Source: Haloferula helveola (GTDB lineage Bacteria > Verrucomicrobiota > Verrucomicrobiia > Verrucomicrobiales > Akkermansiaceae). From it: DNA of 64,000 nt. The notes below the pieces were generated by a model. That model searched no databases. It was not told the DNA's origin and saw only the letters and a program-made list of their open reading frames with translations. The translations under genes and the position numbers were made by a program. This document shows, piece after piece, positions 5,911 to 57,430 of the stretch; position 1 is the first letter of the stretch; each line of letters starts with the position of its first letter. The stretch spans positions 3,224,001 through 3,288,000 of the forward strand of contig NZ_AP024702.1 of the NCBI RefSeq assembly GCF_037076345.1, in the 5' to 3' direction.

Positions 5911-6026
5911 TTTGGAGTGCGGTGGCAGAGCCCCGGCAGGGGCGGCGACACCGCTTTTGCGTTGCGGGAGCACTCCGAGAAAGCGGTGTCGCCGGTCGCA
6001 GGCTCCCTCTGCCACCGCACTCCAAA
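5911..6026. repeat. 116-bp nested palindrome (MITE-like)
   Basis: The outer arms are a perfect 20-bp inverted repeat (5911-5930 with 6007-6026). Inside lies a second perfect 14-bp inverted repeat (5943-5956 with 5980-5993). The whole element can fold into one long hairpin. It lies 2 bases past the RNase R stop, so it may also end that transcript. Confidence 0.75.
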
Positions 6027-6028
6027 TC

Positions 6029-8392
6029 TCACTTCTTCCGCTTGCGCTTGTGGGGGAGGGATTTGGGGCGCTTGCGGGAGGACTTTTTGGCCGATCGCCC
6101 GCCGCCGGTTTTGCTCGGTTTCCAATCCCTCGATTTGCCGCGCTGGCCGCGGGACCCGGGAGCCGGAGAGGCATCCTTCGCGTCGCCATCACCGGCGATC
6201 TTGAAGTCGACGAAGCGACGTTCGTGGTCGATTCGGGCGACCTCCATCTCGATGCGTTGGCCGAGCTGGAAGTGCTTTCCACCCGGTCCGCTGAGGCGCT
6301 GCTGAACGGAGTCCATCCTCCACGGGCCACCACCGGGCAGGTCCTCGCGCTTGATCACGCCACGGGTCGAGATCTCGGTGGCTTCGACCATCAGACCCAT
6401 CGACCGGACTTCGGTGATCAGGCCCTTGAAGACGACCGGCTTGTCCGACTGGGCGCACTGGTCGAGGTAGTCGAGCAGCTTGATCTGCTTCGAGTCGTTC
6501 TCGGCATCGGCCGAGGTGCGCTCGGTATCGGAAATGTGGCGCGCGATGTCCGCCAGCTCGGCCTGCTTCGGTGTCGGGTCCGCCTTCTTCGGGGCGTTGT
6601 CGAGGAATGGCTGGAGGCTGCGATGGACGATCAGGTCGGCGTAGCGTCGGATCGGCGAGGTGAAGTGGCAGTAGTCGGACTTCGACAGGCCGTAGTGGCC
6701 GAGCGCGTCGGGGGAATACGCGGCACGCTTGAGTGACTTCAGCAGCCCGATCTTGATCGCGTGCTCGTCCGGCCGGTCCTTGGCCGCGTCGAGGAGCTGC
6801 TGGATGTGCTTCTTGTTCGTCAGGTCGCCGAAGCTGTAGCCGAAGGCCTCCGCCGTCTCCCCGTACTCCTGGAGCCGGCCGAAGTCGGGCTCCTCGTGGA
6901 CGCGGTGGATGGTCGGCTTGTTGCGGATTTTGAGGATGCGCGCCACCGACTCGTTGGCGGCGAGCATGCACTCCTCGATGAGCTGGTGGCTGGCGGTGTG
7001 GATCACGTGTTCGATCCGGTCGGCCTTGCCGTCGTCGCCGAGGTGCACCCGGATCTCCGGCATCTCAAGGTCGAGGGCGCCATTGGCGAAACGGCGCTTG
7101 CGCAGGGTCGAGGCCATCTTCCACGCCTCGCGCACCATGTCCTCGAGCCCCTTGACCGATCCTGCCGGTGCCTTGCCGCCGTCGAGGATCGTCTGGGCCT
7201 GTTCGTAGGAGAGCTTCGACTGCGAGTGGATCAGAGCGTCGCAGAATCGCGACTTCACGACCTTGCCGTTGCGGTCGATGTCGAGTACCGCGCATTTCGT
7301 CAGCCGGTCGACGTCCGGCTTGAGCGAACAGATGCCGTTGCTGAGCTCGACCGGCAGCATCGGGATCACGCGGTCGACGAGATAGGTCGAGTTGCCGCGC
7401 ATCACCGCCTCCTTGTCGAGCGAAGTACGAGGCTTCACGTAGTGGGAGACGTCGGCGATGTGGACGGCGAGCTTCCAACCCTTCTCCGTCCGCTTCACCC
7501 AGATCGCGTCGTCGTGGTCCTTGGCGTCGGCGGGGTCGATGGTAATCACCAGGCGGTCGCGCCAGTCCTCGCGGCGCTGCGCTTCCTGCGGATCGACTTC
7601 GTCGGGGATGTTGCGCGCTTCGGCGAGCACGTCGTCGGGGAACGACGTGCGGATGCCGTTGCGGTGGATGATCGAGAGGATGTCGACGCCGGCGTCGCCG
7701 GGCCAGCCGAGCACCTCGATGATGCGGCCGTGGGGTGTCTTGTGCTGCCAGTTCTCGATCGAAACGACGACCGTCTGCCCGGGGCGGGCGGTCGTGTCGC
7801 CGATCAGTTCGATGTTGCCGTCGATCGCCGGATCGTCGGCGCGCACCCAGGCGTTCTTGCCCTTCTGCTGGTAGGTGCCGACGATGTTTCCCGAGCGGCG
7901 CTCGAGGATCTCCTCGACCACCGCGCGCATCTCGGGCTCCTCGCCCGGCGGGCGCCCGCCGGAGGAGCGGTTGCTGCGGAATTGTTTCGGGCTGATCGGC
8001 GGGGCCTTGAGCGAAGCGAGCACGCGGTCGCCGTTGAGCGCCTTGCCGGAGTCGCGGCGGGAGACGTAGACACGGCCGTTCTTCTGAAGGTCGATGCCGG
8101 TCGCGATGTTGTCCGGGTCGATGGTGTCGGGGAAAAACCACGCGTCGCCCTTGGGCGTGAACTTGATCGAGCCGCGGAGCGCGTCCTTGCGGGCTTCCGG
8201 GAGGGAGAACCTTCCTTTCTTGCCGGCGACGATCTTGCCCTTCCGTTCGAGGCCGGCGAGTTCGTTGCGGAGGTCGGCGCGCTTGCCGGACGGGACTTCG
8301 AGGGCGCGTGCGAACTCGGACTTGTTGAGGGGCTGGTAATCGCGCTGCTGCATCAACTGGAGGATGCGGTCGCGCAGGGTCAAACGGGGCAT
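6029..8392 (-). CDS. rnr: Ribonuclease R (3'-5' exoribonuclease)
   Basis: A 787-residue protein. I chose the ATG at 8392 (MPRLTLRDRILQLM) because the alternative start 66 bases upstream adds a sequence unlike the family. In order there is an N-terminal winged-helix region (about 1-70), cold-shock OB folds, the RNB catalytic domain with the Asp cluster DPADAKDHDDAIWV (about residue 275), an S1 domain (about 650-730) and a Lys/Arg-rich tail. It degrades structured RNA and takes part in RNA quality control in the cytoplasm. No Shine-Dalgarno sequence is evident. Confidence 0.92.
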   Translation of the reverse strand: MPRLTLRDRILQLMQQRDYQPLNKSEFARALEVPSGKRADLRNELAGLERKGKIVAGKKGRFSLPEARKDALRGSIKFTPKGDAWFFPDTIDPDNIATGIDLQKNGRVYVSRRDSGKALNGDRVLASLKAPPISPKQFRSNRSSGGRPPGEEPEMRAVVEEILERRSGNIVGTYQQKGKNAWVRADDPAIDGNIELIGDTTARPGQTVVVSIENWQHKTPHGRIIEVLGWPGDAGVDILSIIHRNGIRTSFPDDVLAEARNIPDEVDPQEAQRREDWRDRLVITIDPADAKDHDDAIWVKRTEKGWKLAVHIADVSHYVKPRTSLDKEAVMRGNSTYLVDRVIPMLPVELSNGICSLKPDVDRLTKCAVLDIDRNGKVVKSRFCDALIHSQSKLSYEQAQTILDGGKAPAGSVKGLEDMVREAWKMASTLRKRRFANGALDLEMPEIRVHLGDDGKADRIEHVIHTASHQLIEECMLAANESVARILKIRNKPTIHRVHEEPDFGRLQEYGETAEAFGYSFGDLTNKKHIQQLLDAAKDRPDEHAIKIGLLKSLKRAAYSPDALGHYGLSKSDYCHFTSPIRRYADLIVHRSLQPFLDNAPKKADPTPKQAELADIARHISDTERTSADAENDSKQIKLLDYLDQCAQSDKPVVFKGLITEVRSMGLMVEATEISTRGVIKREDLPGGGPWRMDSVQQRLSGPGGKHFQLGQRIEMEVARIDHERRFVDFKIAGDGDAKDASPAPGSRGQRGKSRDWKPSKTGGGRSAKKSSRKRPKSLPHKRKRKK

Positions 8393-8902
8393 GATGAAAA
8401 ATGATGGAAATTGACGCGCCGGACAACCGGGATCGGCCGCGATTTCGGGCGGGTCCACCGGTTGGTGCGCAGGTCGCCGGGGGTGCCGGCGGGCGGAAGA
8501 GCGCGCGGGGTTTGAGGATCGGGTAGCCTGCCCGTTTTCGTCTCGCGCGGGCGGCCATCAAAGGCGGCCGCTGGCGGGAGACTGTCCGCGATTGCCGGGA
8601 AAGCAAGGAGGAAACGGGGCTGGAAGGGGATAGGGTCGGGGTTTGAACCGCGAAAATCGCGAAAGGGCGCGAAATCACGAAGAAGCGGAAGACACTGAAA
8701 TGCTTGGATTCTCCGGCTTTGGTGGCGTTTCGCGAGTTTCGCGGTTCCGCATGAAGATCGGCCGCGCTCCGCCCTGCCGCGGCTGCGGACTTGCGGTAGG
8801 GCCGATTGCAGGTTTAGTTGGGAAAACTGCAGCGGGCGCAATGCGCCGTTGTCAGCCGGTGTCCGATCCCGTTGGATGCCGCCGTCCAAACTGTCCAATA
8901 TC
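8393..8902. other. Intergenic region with an inverted repeat
   Basis: A 510-base gap between the divergent rnr and pseudopilin genes. It holds an inverted repeat: GAACCGCGAAAATCGCGAAA near 8645 pairs with sequence at about 8728-8747. This is one of a group of Cys-free AACCGC(A/G)AAA words that recur near 9.55 and 17.47 kb. No convincing coding sequence was seen. Promoters for both genes must lie here but I could not place them. Confidence 0.4.
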
Positions 8903-9478
8903 ATGAAAACCTACTCAAAAATCCGTCGGCCCGGAGGCTTCACGCTGATCGAGCTGCTCGTCGTCATCACGATCGTCGCGGTTCTCGCCGCCATGAGCTT
9001 CGCCGGGGTGAACATCGCGATCAAGCGGGCCCGGACCACCGAAGGCAACGTCGCCGCCTCCGCCATCCACTCCGCGGTGAACAACTTCTACAGCGAATAC
9101 AGCCGCCTTCCGGAAGTTCAGGGCGAGGTGAAGACCGACTCCGGCACCGGAGTGGATCTGCTCCGCATCCTGCTCGCTGACGAAGGTGACGGCTCGGACA
9201 TCGAGAACAGCCGCAAGATCCCGTTCCTCAACACCAAGGAAGGCACCGGCAAGCGCGGTGGCCTCTACTACGGTTCCAACGGCAACACGGTCCAAGGCAT
9301 GTATGACCCCTTCGGTCAGCCCTACACCATCGTGCTGAACACCGACTACGAGGACGTGCTCCGCTTCAGCAAGGGCGGCAAGCAATTCGAACTTCGCGGT
9401 GAGCAGGTCGCGGTCTTCAGCCCGGGTGCTGACCAGGAGCTCGGCACCAAGGACGACATCGCGAGCTTCGCCGACTGA
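8903..9478 (+). CDS. Type II secretion/type IV pilin-like major pseudopilin (GspG-like)
   Basis: A 191-residue protein. The ATG at 8903 gives a short leader MKTYSKIRRPG followed by the prepilin peptidase motif G/FTLIELLVVITIV and a hydrophobic helix. The C-terminal domain has SEYSRLPE, the GKRGGLYY block and a final GADQELGTKDD loop like the calcium loop of GspG. It should be cleaved and methylated by a prepilin peptidase and assembled into a pseudopilus. It has its own terminator, so it is probably monocistronic. A cleavage-less relative is at 4452. Confidence 0.85.
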   Translation: MKTYSKIRRPGGFTLIELLVVITIVAVLAAMSFAGVNIAIKRARTTEGNVAASAIHSAVNNFYSEYSRLPEVQGEVKTDSGTGVDLLRILLADEGDGSDIENSRKIPFLNTKEGTGKRGGLYYGSNGNTVQGMYDPFGQPYTIVLNTDYEDVLRFSKGGKQFELRGEQVAVFSPGADQELGTKDDIASFAD

Positions 9479-31210: not shown

Positions 31211-31263
31211 GCCGGTGGGCCTACGTGCAGCCGTTGCAGGCTATTTCAGGACGCGCACGGTGG

Positions 31264-31429
<166 letters not shown>

Positions 31430-31550
31430 ACAGCCCCGAAGGGGCGACGGCATTTAGCCACGGGGTTCACCCCGTGGATTCAGAGTGGTGGTTGATTCGG
31501 AGCCCCGGAGGGGCGCAGGCGGACGTGGCTCCATCCCAGAAACCCCGCCT
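31430..31550. repeat. REP-like palindromes
   Basis: Short hairpins GCCCCGAAGGGGC, CACGGGGTTCACCCCGTG and GCCCCGGAGGGGC follow the microsatellites, just past the end of intI. Confidence 0.5.
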
Positions 31551-31582
31551 CACGCGGCATCTCGTGGGACCTCCAAGACTTC

Positions 31583-32923
<1,341 letters not shown>

Positions 32924-32945
32924 GTGAACACTGTTCACTTGAAAC
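32924..32945. promoter_or_regulatory. Possible LexA-like operator at the start of intI
   Basis: GTGAACA-C-TGTTCAC is a perfect 15-bp palindrome with a one-base centre, directly upstream of the intI ATG on the minus strand. The downstream part also reads TGTTC-ACTT-GAAAC, similar to the TGTTC-N4-GAACA motif I recall for verrucomicrobial LexA. intI is often SOS-controlled in other phyla. The site is an inference. Confidence 0.35.
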
Positions 32946-33169
32946 CTATTTGCAGTCCAGAGAGAAATCGATACTTCGTTTATGTTCGTATTCCAAGGTT
33001 GTGCAGCATCGGTGCTATCGGTGGCGCCATCGATCCCGATTCGCGACGCATATCGGTTGCCACGCACCTCCAGAAAATTCAAAGCTCTGAACGAAACAAG
33101 ATCCTCAATGCAGCTCCCCCGAAACCGCCGTTCCCCCTTGATCTTCCAACGTCTGGGGGTTCCATTGGG

Positions 33170-33236
33170 CCTCAAGACAGAAGCGATTGCCATCCCGGCA
33201 TATCACCCTCCCGTCTGACTAATAACACTGTTGTGC
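33170..33236 (+). other. attI: attI recombination site
   Basis: The intI-proximal cassette junction reads ACTG^TTGTGC. Cassette 1 begins TTGTGCAAAG here and begins the same way at its second location (42726), so the G at 33230 is the last base of attI. Bases 32940-33230 carry no convincing gene. A promoter for the cassettes (Pc) should be here but I could not place it reliably. Confidence 0.75.
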
Positions 33237-33243
33237 AAAGAAT

Positions 33244-33660
33244 ATGACGGATGCTGAAGTCGAAGAACTGACCGCCGAGAGGCATCGCAGATCGACGGCC
33301 CACGATCCTCGATTCTCGGCTGACGATACCGCCAAGATTCTTGAAGCGTTCGGAGCGGATCTTCCCCCTGAATTCATCGCGTTCAGGAAGCTGCTCCCAT
33401 TCTACAACGTCACCGGGGACCATCTCCCAGCCAATGAGATGACCGCCACCTACGACTGGGAGGCCGCCAACAACCCGAATTTCACCGAGGATTTCATTCC
33501 GTTCTATGCGATCGGCAATGGGGATTTCCTGTGCCTGTCCAGGTCGGCAGGTCGGCCTTCTCCTGTCCTTTACGTGGCTCACGATGATCCTGAAGTGGCC
33601 GTGCTTCACCCCAGCTTTTCGGATTACTTGCGGAATGCCGAGTGGTATTCGGAGCAGTGA
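33244..33660 (+). CDS. Cassette 1: SMI1/KNR4 (SUKH)-like protein
   Basis: A 138-residue soluble protein. Segments such as LPPEFIAFRKLLPFYN, AIGNGDFLCLSRS and PVLYVAHDD fit the SUKH (SMI1/KNR4) fold. That fold is found in immunity proteins that neutralise contact-dependent toxins, and also in other roles. No toxin partner is present in the cassette. It begins 13 bases after the G^TT junction, without a Shine-Dalgarno sequence. First in the array, so probably the best expressed. Identical copy at 42739 (cassette 17). Confidence 0.7.
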   Translation: MTDAEVEELTAERHRRSTAHDPRFSADDTAKILEAFGADLPPEFIAFRKLLPFYNVTGDHLPANEMTATYDWEAANNPNFTEDFIPFYAIGNGDFLCLSRSAGRPSPVLYVAHDDPEVAVLHPSFSDYLRNAEWYSEQ

Positions 33661-33683: not shown

Positions 33684-33809
33684 GCACAACAAGCCGCCGC
33701 ACCGAACCGCTGCCCCGCCTCTAGTTCCAGCCGCTATGATCGTTCAACCTTCAACCCACAGTCGAAGCCTCGCTCCCGGGCAGCGGTCCGGTGGGCTTTG
33801 ACGTTGGCC
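33684..33809 (+). repeat. attC1
   Basis: R'' GCACAAC to R' GTTGGCC. Ends cassette 1; the cut is after G33803. Confidence 0.85.
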
Positions 33810-33830
33810 CAAAAATTAGACTCCCCTGCG

Positions 33831-34325
33831 ATGCGCCTTTGCACCTTGGCCGCGATTCTCTCATCGGGCCTGATCACTTCATGCACCAAGAGCGAGCTGC
33901 GATACGAATCGGCGAGCATGGAGCCGTCAATCACGCGAGGCGAACTGATTACGATCGAGCCAGCAGCATACCGTGGCTCGAAGCCTGCACGATGGGACGT
34001 TGTGTTGTTCGAGGCACCCACCGGAAGTGGTGGTAGTTGGGCGTCGAGGATTGCCGGCTTGCCGGGAGAGACTGTCAACTTCCGCGACGGATCCCTTTTG
34101 ATCGACGGAGAGCTTGTGGAGCGTCCAGCCCACGTAGCGATAGCAGGTTACCACGCCCCTGATGGTGACTTGAGTCCTGCAGCACCGGGTCCGGTGTCGT
34201 TCCCATTCAAGATCCCTGCCGGGAGCTACTTTGTCCTCGGCGACAACGTTGATAACGCTCTGGACAGTCGCTACTGGGGCGGGCTCGATGAAGCCAAGAT
34301 CCTGGGCAAGGTTGCGGGCAAGTAG
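33831..34325 (+). CDS. Cassette 2: lipoprotein with signal-peptidase-like (S26) fold lacking the catalytic lysine
   Basis: A 164-residue protein. A lipobox (LITSC, Cys18) is followed by signal-peptidase I boxes: SMEPSI (Ser29), the box GLPGE (residues 76-80) and GDNVDNALDSRYWG. In LepB the second box is preceded by the general-base lysine, normally K-R; here the pair reads S-R (Ser72-Arg73). The Ser/Lys dyad would therefore be broken. It may not act as a classical signal peptidase. Identical copy at 43969 (cassette 19). Confidence 0.7.
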   Translation: MRLCTLAAILSSGLITSCTKSELRYESASMEPSITRGELITIEPAAYRGSKPARWDVVLFEAPTGSGGSWASRIAGLPGETVNFRDGSLLIDGELVERPAHVAIAGYHAPDGDLSPAAPGPVSFPFKIPAGSYFVLGDNVDNALDSRYWGGLDEAKILGKVAGK

Positions 34326-34338
34326 CTAGACCAACCAA

Positions 34339-34470
34339 GGCCAACAAGTCGGAGCAGGACGACGCCTACCAGCGGCCTTGTTGAAAATCGGTTTTGGTGA
34401 TTCATTGCCTTCAACAGAGTTCGGGAGCGCCGCTTTAAGGCCCGGCGCCGCCTGTCCTCAAACGTTCTGC
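34339..34470 (+). repeat. attC2
   Basis: R'' GGCCAAC to R' GTTCTGC. Ends cassette 2; cut after G34464. Confidence 0.85.
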
Positions 34471-42738: not shown

Positions 42739-43155
42739 ATGACGGATGCTGAAGTCGAAGAACTGACCGCCGAGAGGCATCGCAGATCGACGGCCCACGA
42801 TCCTCGATTCTCGGCTGACGATACCGCCAAGATTCTTGAAGCGTTCGGAGCGGATCTTCCCCCTGAATTCATCGCGTTCAGGAAGCTGCTCCCATTCTAC
42901 AACGTCACCGGGGACCATCTCCCAGCCAATGAGATGACCGCCACCTACGACTGGGAGGCCGCCAACAACCCGAATTTCACCGAGGATTTCATTCCGTTCT
43001 ATGCGATCGGCAATGGGGATTTCCTGTGCCTGTCCAGGTCGGCAGGTCGGCCTTCTCCTGTCCTTTACGTGGCTCACGATGATCCTGAAGTGGCCGTGCT
43101 TCACCCCAGCTTTTCGGATTACTTGCGGAATGCCGAGTGGTATTCGGAGCAGTGA
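42739..43155 (+). CDS. Cassette 17: second copy of the SUKH-like protein
   Basis: Same 138-residue protein as cassette 1 in a 573-base cassette, including the first bases TTGTGCAAAG. Cassette 18 then 19 follow; their order differs from that of cassettes 1-4. Confidence 0.7.
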   Translation: MTDAEVEELTAERHRRSTAHDPRFSADDTAKILEAFGADLPPEFIAFRKLLPFYNVTGDHLPANEMTATYDWEAANNPNFTEDFIPFYAIGNGDFLCLSRSAGRPSPVLYVAHDDPEVAVLHPSFSDYLRNAEWYSEQ

Positions 43156-43921: not shown

Positions 43922-43947
43922 CGGGTCCCAGGCCTTCAACGTTGGCC
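43823..43947 (+). repeat. attC18
   Basis: R'' GCAGAAC to R' GTTGGCC. Cut after G43941. Confidence 0.85.
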
Positions 43948-43968
43948 CAAAAATTAGACTCCCCTGCG

Positions 43969-44463
43969 ATGCGCCTTTGCACCTTGGCCGCGATTCTCTC
44001 ATCGGGCCTGATCACTTCATGCACCAAGAGCGAGCTGCGATACGAATCGGCGAGCATGGAGCCGTCAATCACGCGAGGCGAACTGATTACGATCGAGCCA
44101 GCAGCATACCGTGGCTCGAAGCCTGCACGATGGGACGTTGTGTTGTTCGAGGCACCCACCGGAAGTGGTGGTAGTTGGGCGTCGAGGATTGCCGGCTTGC
44201 CGGGAGAGACTGTCAACTTCCGCGACGGATCCCTTTTGATCGACGGAGAGCTTGTGGAGCGTCCAGCCCACGTAGCGATAGCAGGTTACCACGCCCCTGA
44301 TGGTGACTTGAGTCCTGCAGCACCGGGTCCGGTGTCGTTCCCATTCAAGATCCCTGCCGGGAGCTACTTTGTCCTCGGCGACAACGTTGATAACGCTCTG
44401 GACAGTCGCTACTGGGGCGGGCTCGATGAAGCCAAGATCCTGGGCAAGGTTGCGGGCAAGTAG
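43969..44463 (+). CDS. Cassette 19: second copy of the S26-like lipoprotein
   Basis: Same as cassette 2 (164 residues) in a 661-base cassette. It also has the Ser-Arg pair in place of Lys-Arg. Confidence 0.7.
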   Translation: MRLCTLAAILSSGLITSCTKSELRYESASMEPSITRGELITIEPAAYRGSKPARWDVVLFEAPTGSGGSWASRIAGLPGETVNFRDGSLLIDGELVERPAHVAIAGYHAPDGDLSPAAPGPVSFPFKIPAGSYFVLGDNVDNALDSRYWGGLDEAKILGKVAGK

Positions 44464-44476
44464 CTAGACCAACCAA

Positions 44477-44608
44477 GGCCAACAAGTCGGAGCAGGACGA
44501 CGCCTACCAGCGGCCTTGTTGAAAATCGGTTTTGGTGATTCATTGCCTTCAACAGAGTTCGGGAGCGCCGCTTTAAGGCCCGGCGCCGCCTGTCCTCAAA
44601 CGTTCTGC
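44477..44608 (+). repeat. attC19
   Basis: R'' GGCCAAC to R' GTTCTGC. Cut after G44602. Confidence 0.85.
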
Positions 44609-55116: not shown

Positions 55117-55248
55117 AGCGAACAAGGCGCTGGTGGACGACCCCTATCAGCGGCTTTGTTGCGTCCTTGCCGCCAGCTTCGGAAGGTGATTGATTGTCCG
55201 TGGCCGCTCCGGTGAGTTACCGGGGTCGCCACAGCTTTTACGTTGGCC
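55117..55248 (+). repeat. attC32
   Basis: R'' AGCGAAC to R' GTTGGCC. Diverged from attC7 and attC23. Cut after G55242. Confidence 0.83.
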
Positions 55249-55324
55249 AGAAAATAGCGGTTCGGAGTGTATCCTGAGATTGGGGTTGCGGGCGTGCGCC
55301 AATGGCGTATGGTGGTGCCTGGGG

Positions 55325-55642
55325 ATGATCTTCTATGAGACCGACGTTTTCACAGCGCGCATCGTCGAACTCATCGATGACGAATCATACTCTGCACTGC
55401 AGGCCGTGCTGGTCGCAGATCCCGAGGCGGGGGACATCATTCCCCGGTCGAAGGGATTGCGGAAGATTCGTTGGATGGGCAGCGGACGAGGCAAGCGGGG
55501 TGGATTACGAGTGATCTATTACTTGGTCCACCACGAGGCGATCTTCATGCTTTACGCCTACCCGAAGAACCGAGAATCCGACCTGACACAACGCCATCTC
55601 CAGATCCTCAGAGAGCTGGTTGAACAACACCTGAACCAATGA
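55325..55642 (+). CDS. Cassette 33: RelE/HigB-type toxin
   Basis: A 105-residue RelE-fold toxin. The segment GLRKIRWMGSGRGKRGGLRV and IYYLVHHEAIFMLYAY resemble the HigB2 toxin group, which is also found in vibrio superintegrons. The toxin gene precedes the antitoxin and overlaps it (ATGA), as in HigBA. A possible promoter (TTGCGG with TATGGT 16 bases later) precedes it. It would cleave mRNA at the ribosome. Confidence 0.78.
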   Translation: MIFYETDVFTARIVELIDDESYSALQAVLVADPEAGDIIPRSKGLRKIRWMGSGRGKRGGLRVIYYLVHHEAIFMLYAYPKNRESDLTQRHLQILRELVEQHLNQ

Positions 55643-55929
55643 ACGACGAAGATTTCGAACTGCTTTGCGAGAGCATCCGCCAAGCCGGTGAGATCCGGCA
55701 GGGGAAGCGGAAGCCATCTAGAACCTTCAAGGTGGGGGATCCCGACGCGAAGGCGATCCGGGAGCGCCTGGGTCTTTCCCAGTCCCGATTCGCCGCGATC
55801 ATTGGAGTCAGCGTTCGCACGCTGCAGAATTGGGAGCAGGGTCGGCGCGAGCCCGAAGGTCCCGCGAAGGCGTTGCTCCGCGTCGTCGACCGAGAGCCGC
55901 AAGCTGTGCTCCAAGCACTCCACGCCTGA
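55639..55929 (+). CDS. Cassette 33: XRE-family antitoxin (HigA-like)
   Basis: A 96-residue protein with a helix-turn-helix (about 42-80; LGLSQSRFAAIIGVSVRTLQ, then NWEQGRREP). It neutralises the preceding toxin and should repress the operon. Confidence 0.82.
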   Translation: MNDEDFELLCESIRQAGEIRQGKRKPSRTFKVGDPDAKAIRERLGLSQSRFAAIIGVSVRTLQNWEQGRREPEGPAKALLRVVDREPQAVLQALHA

Positions 55930-55943
55930 TCGGAACAAGACAA

Positions 55944-56070
55944 GGCCAACAAGCCGTGGAAGATCGACGCCTAACCGCCGCATTGTTGGACGCCGTGCTG
56001 GCGGTTCGCCCCGTGATCATTTCGCCGCCGTGCGGCTTTTTGTTCGCGCGTGTTCACTGAGACGTTCGGC
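55944..56070 (+). repeat. attC33
   Basis: R'' GGCCAAC to R' GTTCGGC. Cut after G56064. Confidence 0.83.
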
Positions 56071-56092
56071 TAAAATCAGGTTGCCGAGCCCC

Positions 56093-56114
56093 GAGTGATA
56101 CTTTAGTGTCACTC
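56093..56114. promoter_or_regulatory. Putative antitoxin operator
   Basis: The inverted repeat GAGTGA...TCACTC (56093-56098 and 56109-56114) directly precedes the Phd-like antitoxin start, a usual place for antitoxin autoregulation. Confidence 0.45.
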
Positions 56115-56115
56115 C

Positions 56116-56373
56116 ATGCGAACCGAACTGGTCACGACCCTAAAGCGGAAGGCGACGGATCTCATTAGCGAGATTGCGACCGACCACGAACCTGTGTTGA
56201 TCACCCAGCACGGACTCCCGGCAGCCTACCTCGTGGACGTGGAGAGCTACGAAGCAATGAGGGCGAGGATCGGGCTTCTTGAGGGAATCGCAAAGGGTGA
56301 GAAGGCGATCGAGGAGGGACGAGTGCTCACCCACGCCGAAGCGAAGAAGCGGATGTCCCGATGGCTCGATTGA
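56116..56373 (+). CDS. Cassette 34: Phd/YefM-type antitoxin
   Basis: An 85-residue protein with ISEIATDHEPVLITQHGLPA and AYLVDVESYEAM, the Phd/YefM fold. It overlaps the following ParE toxin by 13 bases. N-terminal DNA-binding part and C-terminal toxin-binding tail. Confidence 0.82.
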   Translation: MRTELVTTLKRKATDLISEIATDHEPVLITQHGLPAAYLVDVESYEAMRARIGLLEGIAKGEKAIEEGRVLTHAEAKKRMSRWLD

Positions 56374-56672
56374 TTTGGACCGAGCCGGCGCTTCAAGATC
56401 TCGAGCAGATCGCCGACTACATCGCACTCGATGATCACCATGCGGCCTGCCGCCTGATTAGAACCGTCTTTGAGAAGGCCGAGCTGCTGGAGACATTCCC
56501 CGAGATGTGTCCAGTCCCCCACGATCTTCCTGATTCGCGATACCGTCATCTCATTGTCGGTCCGTTGCGGATCTTCCATCGGGTCGAGGGAGAGAAGGTA
56601 TTCATCGTGTACGTCATGAGATCCGAACGTCGCCTTGATCTGTCGGACCTCGAAGGGCGAGACAAAGAATAA
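56361..56672 (+). CDS. Cassette 34: ParE/RelE-type toxin
   Basis: A 103-residue protein with WTEPALQDLEQIADYIALDD and YRHLIVGPLRIFHRVEGEKVFI, the ParE pattern. ParE toxins inhibit gyrase; RelE relatives cut mRNA; I prefer ParE. Confidence 0.8.
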   Translation: MARLIWTEPALQDLEQIADYIALDDHHAACRLIRTVFEKAELLETFPEMCPVPHDLPDSRYRHLIVGPLRIFHRVEGEKVFIVYVMRSERRLDLSDLEGRDKE

Positions 56673-56673
56673 T

Positions 56674-56803
56674 GCAGAACAAGTCGGTGGTTCCGACGCC
56701 TGACAGCGGCCTTGTTGCAGGCTTGCCGCCAGCTTCGGGTGCTGCTTGCTTGTGGAAGCCGGGTCGCCGAGTAGCCGGCGCCTGCACACCTGTTACGTTC
56801 GTC
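56674..56803 (+). repeat. attC34
   Basis: R'' GCAGAAC to R' GTTCGTC. Cut after G56797. Confidence 0.83.
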
Positions 56804-56849
56804 AGAAAAATCTGCTTGCGGCGCAGTTTCTGTACGCGATCCTGTCCAC

Positions 56850-57107
56850 ATGAAGGCAATTTCGTACACAGCCGCCCGAGAGACCTTGGCGGCAACCATG
56901 CAGTCAGTGTGTGATGACAGGGAGCCGGTAATTATCACGCGGAAGCGGGATCAGGCAGTTGTGATGATGTCGCTCGACGACTTCGAGTCGATGCAGGAGA
57001 CGGCTTATTTGAGGCGCTCTCCGGCGAATGCGGAGAGATTGGATTCTGCAGTAGCCCAGCTTGAGTCCGGGCGCGGGCAAGAGAGGAATCTCCCGCCTGC
57101 AGAATGA
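56850..57107 (+). CDS. yefM: Cassette 35: YefM-type antitoxin
   Basis: An 85-residue protein with ISYTAARETLAATMQSVCDD and REPVIITRKRDQAVVMMSL, the YefM/Phd signature. Its stop overlaps the toxin start (ATGA). Confidence 0.85.
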   Translation: MKAISYTAARETLAATMQSVCDDREPVIITRKRDQAVVMMSLDDFESMQETAYLRRSPANAERLDSAVAQLESGRGQERNLPPAE

Positions 57108-57370
57108 AGCTCAGGCTGATTTTCGCAGACCAGGCTTGGGAGGATGTCTGCCACTGGGTATCGACCGACAAGAAGGTGCTGAAGCGTTTGATCCGATTGA
57201 TTGACGAGTGTCGGTCGACTCCATTTGAAGGGATCGGCAAGCCTGAACCTTTGCGCGAGAACCTGTCCGGCTACTGGTCACGACGGATTACTGACGAGCA
57301 CCGTTTGGTCTACAAGGTGTCGGGCGACGAACTCTGGATTGCCCAAGCCCGCTACCACTACACCAAATAG
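57104..57370 (+). CDS. yoeB: Cassette 35: YoeB-type toxin
   Basis: An 88-residue Txe/YoeB toxin: IFADQAWEDVCHWVSTDKK, GKPEPLRENLSGYWSRRIT and C-terminal YHYTK. It cleaves mRNA at translating ribosomes. Third toxin-antitoxin cassette in a row. Confidence 0.87.
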   Translation: MKLRLIFADQAWEDVCHWVSTDKKVLKRLIRLIDECRSTPFEGIGKPEPLRENLSGYWSRRITDEHRLVYKVSGDELWIAQARYHYTK

Positions 57371-57430
57371 CGAGGAATAAGTGGGAGATGCCGCCGTGTG
57401 GCCCGGTGCCCCATTCCTCTAACGTTAGCC
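57371..57430 (+). repeat. attC35 (short, degenerate)
   Basis: About 60 bases. GAGGAAT (57372) pairs with ATTCCTC before the R' GTTAGCC, but the left side lacks the AAC of R''. Cut after G57424. Confidence 0.6.

What the first reader, a model, noticed from the sequence alone, without database searches (positions are those of the whole stretch)
33831..34325. Signal-peptidase-like lipoprotein without the catalytic lysine
Boxes SMEPS and GDNVDNALDSRYWG are kept, but Lys-Arg is Ser-Arg (residues 72-73), and the protein is a lipoprotein. It may be a dead relative used as a binder or inhibitor. Present in two identical copies.
Basis: partly seen in the sequence, partly recalled or inferred. Interest (0 to 1): 0.55.

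Follow-up and report, generated by a model that had tools for sequence, protein, structure and literature searches.

The report
Mobile lipoprotein resembling a dead signal peptidase
A small membrane-anchored protein built like the enzyme that trims exported proteins, but without the lysine that enzyme needs to cut, sits on a mobile gene cassette; most relatives found lack the same residue, so it probably holds peptides instead of cutting them.

Summary
Confirmed. Window 33831-34325 encodes a 164-residue signal peptidase I homologue (Pfam Peptidase_S26, 110.7 bits) with a lipobox (ITSC). The nucleophile Ser29 is kept; the general-base lysine is Ser72. The gene is a cassette (33804-34464) in an integron array beside an integron integrase. 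A second, identical cassette lies at 43942-44602, and a third copy (one base different) at 1.28 Mb.

The lysine loss is a family trait. Of 21 distinct family sequences found, 20 carry a lipobox-like motif and 18 lack the lysine (F, S, M, L, G or R instead); four of these 18 also lost the serine. The residue equivalent to E. coli Ser278, which supports the lysine, is Ala in 13 of 18; all 85 lysine-bearing S26 rows counted have Ser. No replacement lysine is evident. AlphaFold2 (pLDDT 91.6) gives the signal peptidase fold; the best PDB match is SipA of Streptococcus pyogenes, a peptidase-inactive homologue.

Best explanation: a non-cleaving, lipid-anchored pseudo-signal-peptidase that binds extended peptides and is carried by integrons. 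Loss of activity is well supported by sequence; peptide binding is inferred. New variant of a known kind: the dead fold has precedents, but I found no report of the lipid anchor, the integron carriage or the family.

The parts
31583..33193 (-). integron integrase IntI (ORF of 536 aa; the match covers residues 197-502, so about 190 N-terminal residues are extra or mis-started)
   Evidence: TIGR02249 342.4 bits, cut-off 265
33684..33809 (+). attC site of the preceding (first) cassette
   Evidence: model R1, 88.1 bits
33804..34464 (+). gene cassette carrying the pseudo-signal-peptidase (starts G|TTGGCC, own R'' box GGCCAAC at 34339)
   Evidence: matching core sites; identical to 43942-44602
33831..34325 (+). 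S26 (signal peptidase I-like) lipoprotein without the catalytic lysine
33831..33884 (+). lipoprotein signal peptide, MRLCTLAAILSSGLITSC, lipid Cys18 codon at 33882-33884
   Evidence: lipobox pattern ITSC; lipobox-like motif in 20 of 21 family sequences
33915..33917 (+). Ser29, equivalent of the E. coli Ser90 nucleophile (kept)
   Evidence: alignment A5
34044..34046 (+). Ser72 (TCG), at the position of the E. coli Lys145 general base (lost)
34257..34259 (+). Ala143 (GCT), at the position of E. coli Ser278, which supports Lys145
   Evidence: role of Ser278 from PMC4049620
34339..34470 (+). attC site of this cassette
   Evidence: model R1, 99.9 bits (this site is one of the 22 the model was built from)
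43942..44602 (+). second, identical cassette
43969..44463 (+). second copy of the S26 lipoprotein gene
44477..44608 (+). attC site of the second copy
   Evidence: model R1, 99.9 bits
33231..58882 (+). integron cassette array, about 38 cassettes as I cut them by core sites and attC hits, a few of the latter weak; the longest ATG ORF is on the + strand in 34 of 38

Best explanation
A catalytically dead signal peptidase I homologue whose transmembrane anchor has been replaced by a lipid anchor, carried on a mobile integron cassette. The lipidated Cys18 would hold the S26 domain on the periplasmic face of a membrane. With no general-base lysine and a decayed lysine pocket it should not cleave. It would work by holding an extended peptide segment in the remains of the substrate groove, as proposed for SipA: adaptor, chaperone or competitor. 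Shown: homology, predicted fold, lysine loss in most of the family found, loss of supporting residues along with it, cassette context. Inferred: absence of activity, lipidation, peptide binding, and what the peptide is.
For: S26 homology. AlphaFold2 pLDDT 91.6, pTM 0.85; best PDB match SipA 4n31_B, Z 19.2, rmsd 1.7 over 128 residues, ahead of E. coli LepB 1t7d_A, Z 16.4 (also first by Foldseek). Family survey: 18 of 21 K-less; Ser278 position Ala in 13 of 18; Gly272 position Ser in 2 of 18; nucleophile lost in 4 of 18; against this, 85 of 85 K-bearing rows counted keep Ser278 and Gly272. In the 59-row alignment A5, 39 of 39 K-bearing rows keep the nucleophile and 38 of 39 Ser278 (one Thr), against 14 of 20 and 8 of 20 K-less. 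SipA shows the same pattern (Gly85 for Lys145, Arg145 for Ser278, Asn140 for Gly272) with no detectable peptidase activity (PMC4049620, section 8). The fold is predicted even for L012, which has Ile for Ser and Met for Lys (pLDDT 89.1; best match again SipA, Z 17.4). Purifying selection: dN/dS 0.25 at dS 0.45 for the two G266 copies; about 0.2 for P0001-L007, near saturation.
Against: Ser29 is kept, as in 14 of 18 K-less members, so residual or unusual chemistry is not excluded. Outside the family the Ser278 link is weak: 13 of 17 other K-less rows keep Ser278. Groove residues of P0001 differ from E. coli LepB (Ile86 to Tyr25, Pro87 to Glu26, Ile144 to Ala71; groove assignment recalled), so signal-peptide-type binding is not established. 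Three family members keep the full dyad (L068, L103, L104), so the family is not uniformly dead, and the tree cannot say whether lysine was lost several times or regained. SipA itself showed no peptide or pilin binding in vitro. No pilus or sortase gene turned up among the 10 cassette products (9 distinct, of about 38) that I scanned with Pfam.
Confidence: 0.58

Rival explanations
1. Still an active peptidase that uses Ser29 with another base, or substrate-assisted catalysis, on a special substrate.
For: Ser29 and box E are kept; Ser is retained in 14 of 18 K-less family members; three relatives keep the full dyad.
Against: Among the charged, His, Tyr, Ser and Thr positions of P0001 that I checked, the ones kept in 12 or more of 14 K-less family rows (Arg54, Asp56, Arg73, Asp138, Asp145, Ser146, Arg147) are general S26 positions, also in the consensus or near-invariant list of the mixed alignment, so no new base stands out. 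The lysine-support residue is lost in 13 of 18 and the nucleophile in 4 of 18.
Confidence: 0.15
2. Decoy or inhibitor: the dead domain binds an SPase-directed lipopeptide (arylomycin type), or competes with the housekeeping LepB for substrates, and so protects or tunes the secretory pathway.
For: Integrons carry adaptive cargo (general knowledge). The SipA groove binds a peptide in the arylomycin mode (PMC4049620 section 9). A canonical LepB is present in the same genome (L005). K-bearing and K-less paralogues share one array in G594.
Against: No direct evidence. Groove residues have changed. If the lipoprotein goes to the outer membrane (Thr at +2 suggests this by the E. coli rule, recalled) it would not meet inner-membrane preproteins.
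Confidence: 0.17
3. A decaying former signal peptidase with no function, copied passively with the array.
For: Cassettes in this array are often duplicated whatever they encode; one relative in G029 is a fragment with an in-frame TGA.
Against: Open frames in 21 distinct sequences; dN/dS about 0.1-0.25 in the pairs with enough changes; box E, Arg73, Asp56 and the predicted fold are kept.
Confidence: 0.07

Closest known systems
SipA/LepA of Streptococcus pyogenes (PDB 4n31, 4k8w; PMC4049620)
   Same: SPase I fold with the small cap; catalytic Lys replaced; Ser278 and (in two relatives of P0001) Gly272 equivalents changed; best structural match
   Different: SipA also lacks the Ser (Asp48), is TM-anchored, lies in a Gram-positive pilus operon and is needed for pilus polymerisation. 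P0001 keeps Ser, has a lipobox and sits on an integron cassette
E. coli LepB, type I signal peptidase (PDB 1b12, 1t7d)
   Same: Boxes B to E, fold (Z 16.4 to 1t7d_A), Ser nucleophile, DSR motif
   Different: No Lys145, Ala for Ser278, no TM helix, no large cap insertion, altered groove residues
SpsA of Staphylococcus aureus
   Same: SPase homologue called inactive, lacking two conserved catalytic residues (PMC12445088, passages)
   Different: Gram-positive, paired with active SpsB. Its sequence and gene context were not examined here
ER and archaeal-type signal peptidase (Sec11)
   Same: S26 clan in which Lys is replaced by another residue (His; recalled)
   Different: P0001 has Ser, and none of the 18 K-less family members has His there; weaker structural match (7p2q_A, Z 7.5)
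Lipobox-bearing S26 with intact Ser-Lys (L068, L103, L104)
   Same: Same short lipoprotein architecture; L103 and L104 have attC sites beside them and an integrase in the same stretch or contig
   Different: They keep Lys and Ser278, so they are probably active

Membership tests
Type I signal peptidase (S26A) as an active enzyme | S26 homology and fold | tested here: met
   PF10502 110.7 bits, TIGR02227 108.3 bits; predicted fold Z 16.4 to E. coli LepB
Type I signal peptidase (S26A) as an active enzyme | Ser nucleophile in box B | tested here: met
   Ser29, SASMEPS
Type I signal peptidase (S26A) as an active enzyme | general-base Lys in box D | tested here: not met
   Ser72
Type I signal peptidase (S26A) as an active enzyme | Ser278 equivalent that positions the Lys | tested here: not met
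   Ala143; Ser in 85 of 85 K-bearing rows counted, 38 of 39 plus one Thr in A5
Type I signal peptidase (S26A) as an active enzyme | N-terminal transmembrane anchor | tested here: not met
   18-residue lipoprotein-type signal peptide ending in ITSC instead (pattern only)
Type I signal peptidase (S26A) as an active enzyme | cleaves preproteins | not testable with these tools
   needs an assay
SipA-type non-catalytic SPase homologue | SPase fold with the catalytic apparatus lost | tested here: met
   Lys and Ser278 equivalents lost; Ser kept, unlike SipA
SipA-type non-catalytic SPase homologue | location in a pilus operon with a class-B sortase | tested here: inconclusive
   integron array; no pilin or sortase among the 10 cassette products (9 distinct, of about 38) scanned with Pfam
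SipA-type non-catalytic SPase homologue | conserved peptide-binding groove | tested here: inconclusive
   hydrophobic Met30, Ile34, Ile40 and Val58 kept; Ile86, Pro87 and Ile144 equivalents changed
Bacterial lipoprotein | lipobox with invariant Cys after a short hydrophobic segment | tested here: met
   ITSC; 20 of 21 family sequences match a lenient pattern, some weakly at -3; lipidation itself not tested
Integron gene cassette | flanking attC with R'' complementary to the cassette's own first bases, in an array beside IntI | tested here: met
   GTTGGCC / GGCCAAC; attC 99.9 bits; IntI 342.4 bits
ER-type (Sec11) S26B Ser-His peptidase | His at the Lys position | tested here: not met
   Ser72; F, S, M, L, G or R in the 18 K-less family members

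The most novel reading that the evidence does not exclude
A family of lipid-anchored signal peptidase pseudoenzymes, found here in genomes of one phylum (the nearest named relative is a Verrucomicrobiaceae MAG), has repeatedly lost the Ser-Lys machinery and is traded between bacteria as integron cassettes. It acts as a periplasmic peptide-capture module, for instance a decoy for SPase-directed lipopeptides or a trap for exported peptides of rivals or phages: an integron cargo function that protects or redirects the secretory pathway.
Probability: 0.2. Interest if true: 0.75.

Novelty: new variant of a known kind. Interest (0 to 1): 0.52.

Why it matters
Signal peptidase I is usually an essential enzyme, and its known dead homologues (SipA, SpsA) are few and poorly understood. 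A diverse lipoprotein family without the lysine, in several genera and families and partly on mobile cassettes, suggests that bacteria keep this fold for something other than cutting. It also provides a natural experiment: K-bearing and K-less relatives of the same short architecture, in one case in the same array (G594), make the question of what a non-cutting signal peptidase does directly testable. It adds a cargo type to integrons, whose cassettes are mostly of unknown function (general knowledge).

Tried and rejected
Compensating lysine: checked the six Lys of P0001 across 14 K-less family rows. Only Lys160 is common (10 of 14), and a Lys there is also in the consensus of the mixed alignment A5, so it is not a substitute. 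His as base (ER type): rejected. Single-window accident: rejected, because relatives from several genomes lack the lysine too.

Plasmid or phage cargo: tblastn found 294 plasmid and 14 phage records, all under 60% identity; of the 20 plasmid and 14 phage rows listed, the highest identity is 37.0%, and the annotated ones carry signal peptidase names. The genome-contig scan gave one relative, L007.

Literature searches showed, in the rows listed, no paper on S26 integron cassettes or K-less lipoprotein signal peptidases. I saw listings and starts of abstracts only, except: PMC4049620 (passages plus sections 8, 9 and part 1 of 2 of section 12), PMC12445088, PMC7923331 and PMC9668308 (passages).

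Groove conservation: mixed, not decisive. Number of lysine losses: unresolved (minimum 3 changes). attC in the other ten family loci (L009, L010, L039, L040, L041, L043, L052, L105, L154, L155): none at E 0.1 with the window-built model, which may miss divergent attC.

Full report
Observation. ORF 33831-34325 encodes 164 residues that match Pfam Peptidase_S26 (110.7 bits) and NCBIfam signal peptidase I (108.3 bits, cut-off 47). HMMER aligns SWASRIAGLPGE with DYIKRAVGLPGD of E. coli signal peptidase I, placing Ser72 on Lys145. Ser29 occupies the nucleophile position. The N-terminus ends in ITSC|TK, a lipobox by pattern.

Context. An integron integrase (TIGR02249, 342.4 bits, cut-off 265) lies at 31583-33193 on the minus strand. 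To its right an array of about 38 cassettes follows, as cut by core sites and attC hits; the longest ATG ORF is on the plus strand in 34 of 38. A covariance model built from 22 window attC sites, with only 5 base pairs and so mostly a sequence model, gives 38 hits in the window at E 0.01, including by construction those 22. The S26 cassette is 33804-34464: it begins G|TTGGCC and carries its own GGCCAAC R'' box at 34339. A second cassette, 43942-44602, is identical over all 661 bases; a third copy at G000:C1:1283737 differs by one base and lies in an attC cluster whose nearest above-cut-off integrase is about 0.3 Mb away. 'Present in two identical copies' is therefore cassette duplication, common in this array.

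Relatives. Searches covered 97 relatives, 387 genomes of the phylum, 285 of the class and 386 of the order; these sets overlap, and of each search I read at most the 30 loci returned. Viral contigs gave L068 and genome contigs L007, a Verrucomicrobiaceae MAG, 57% identical. With an HMM of 11 family members (which favours those 11), 21 distinct sequences score above 140 bits, the lowest at 144.8 and the next row at 124. Of the 21, 20 carry a lipobox-like motif and 18 lack the lysine: F 7, S 4, M 3, L 2, G 1, R 1. P0001 and its one-residue variant count as two rows. The three with lysine are L068, L103 and L104.

The lysine pocket has decayed. In SipA the losses of Lys145, Ser278 and Gly272 go together (PMC4049620 section 8: Ser278 stabilises Lys145; a side chain at Gly272 would clash with it). 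In the survey all 85 K-bearing rows counted have Ser at 278 and Gly at 272; of the 18 K-less family rows 13 have Ala at 278 and 2 have Ser at 272; of 17 other K-less rows only 4 have Ala at 278 and 13 keep Ser (Fisher p 2e-11 over all rows, inflated by relatedness). In the 59-row alignment A5 the nucleophile is Ser in 39 of 39 K-bearing and 14 of 20 K-less rows, and position 278 is Ser in 38 of 39 (one Thr) and 8 of 20. In the family the nucleophile is N, I, G or A in 4 of 18. Among the charged, His, Tyr, Ser and Thr positions checked, no new base or lysine stands out in the K-less rows.

Structure. AlphaFold2 with a 59-row alignment gives pLDDT 91.6, pTM 0.85. Foldseek's first hit is SipA 4n31_B (E 1.8e-9). 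VIA-align puts SipA at Z 19.2, rmsd 1.7 over 128 residues, and E. coli LepB 1t7d_A at Z 16.4. L012, with Ile for Ser and Met for Lys, is still predicted with this fold (pLDDT 89.1; SipA Z 17.4). The small cap shared with SipA may by itself raise that match. Coordinates are not released, so distances in the site were not measured.

Evolution. The tree puts 15 K-less rows and the three K-bearing family rows in one clade (92/81), with L103/L104 (94/88) and L068 (91/65) nested among K-less rows; at least 3 changes are needed. Repeated loss is more plausible to me than regain, but the data do not decide. dN/dS is 0.25 at dS 0.45 for two copies in G266, and about 0.2 but near saturation for P0001 against L007 and L009, consistent with purifying selection; the pairs L041/L137 (0.51) and L103/L104 (0.67) rest on few changes.

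Integron link. On loci of similar size, the attC model hits 9 of 19 family loci (L002, L003, L004, L007, L012, L103, L104, L149, L153), against 0 of 51 other S26 loci, 170 kb. Of the nine, L002-L004 are the three copies of this genome, two of them inside the window that gave the model, and L007 and L149 hold the same sequence, so five independent cases remain outside this genome. Integrase genes at 43-45% identity lie near L103 and in the contig of L104. L068 has only a weak hit downstream (19.8 bits). Ten family loci have no hit (L009, L010, L039, L040, L041, L043, L052, L105, L154, L155); L010 has a core-like GTTGGCC upstream and a one-base-off R'' downstream, seen by eye.

Function. Most likely a non-cleaving, lipid-anchored pseudo-signal-peptidase that binds peptide segments. 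What it binds is unknown. SipA is the best model of how it may work, and even there binding was not shown in vitro. Groove residues are partly kept (Met30, Ile34, Ile40, Val58) and partly changed (Tyr25, Glu26, Ala71) (groove assignments recalled, the positions from the alignment), so a specificity other than Ala-X-Ala is likely.

Novelty. Dead SPase homologues are known (SipA; SpsA, called inactive in PMC12445088). Cassettes for secreted and membrane proteins are also known as a class (PMC9668308, passage). The lipid-anchored, lysine-less S26 family and its integron carriage I did not find in print (searches in Tried and rejected).

Noticed in passing
G000:C1:972093-973034, 3255688-3256605 (window) and 3457223-3458161: Three integron integrases above the TIGR02249 cut-off in one genome, each with attC hits beside it, plus attC clusters without a nearby integrase at about 1.28, 1.95 and 2.24 Mb (the attC search scored 150 of 4979 candidates, so its 70 hits are a lower bound).
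   Followed up: partly
window 55243-57424: Toxin-like cassettes: RelE (55325), ParE (56361) and YoeB (57104) domains by Pfam.
   Followed up: partly
window 33231-58882: Several cassettes are present two or three times at 96-100% identity over 300-nt stretches (for example 37550, 38765 and 45105; 37001, 46275 and 54694); many products look secreted, lipoprotein-like or membrane-bound by eye.
   Followed up: partly
L001 (G000:C1:4575240-4575725): The same genome has another lysine-less S26 paralogue, apparently TM-anchored, with Gly for the nucleophile and Gln for the lysine.
   Followed up: partly
L014, L016, L024, L042, L047, L066, L108, L111, L114, L156, L159, L161, L163, L166: Further lysine-less S26 proteins outside the family (17 rows in all, one with a lipobox-like match), with Q, F, M, E, H or W for the lysine in these: degenerate S26 paralogues look common in these genomes.
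   Followed up: partly
L004:2780-3460 (-), near the third copy: ORF that looks like a group II intron reverse transcriptase next to the attC cluster; recognised by eye only.
   Followed up: no
window 33244-33657 and 42739-43152: SMI1/KNR4 (SUKH) domain protein, a fold often found in toxin immunity proteins (that link recalled), in the first cassette and duplicated.
   Followed up: no
window 31225-31700: G-rich short repeats (translated as [20 protein letters not shown] repeats) next to the end of the integrase gene.
   Followed up: no
L131 (G594:C46), 5979-6470 and 8632-9141: A lysine-bearing and a lysine-less lipoprotein S26 gene in the same integron array.
   Followed up: partly
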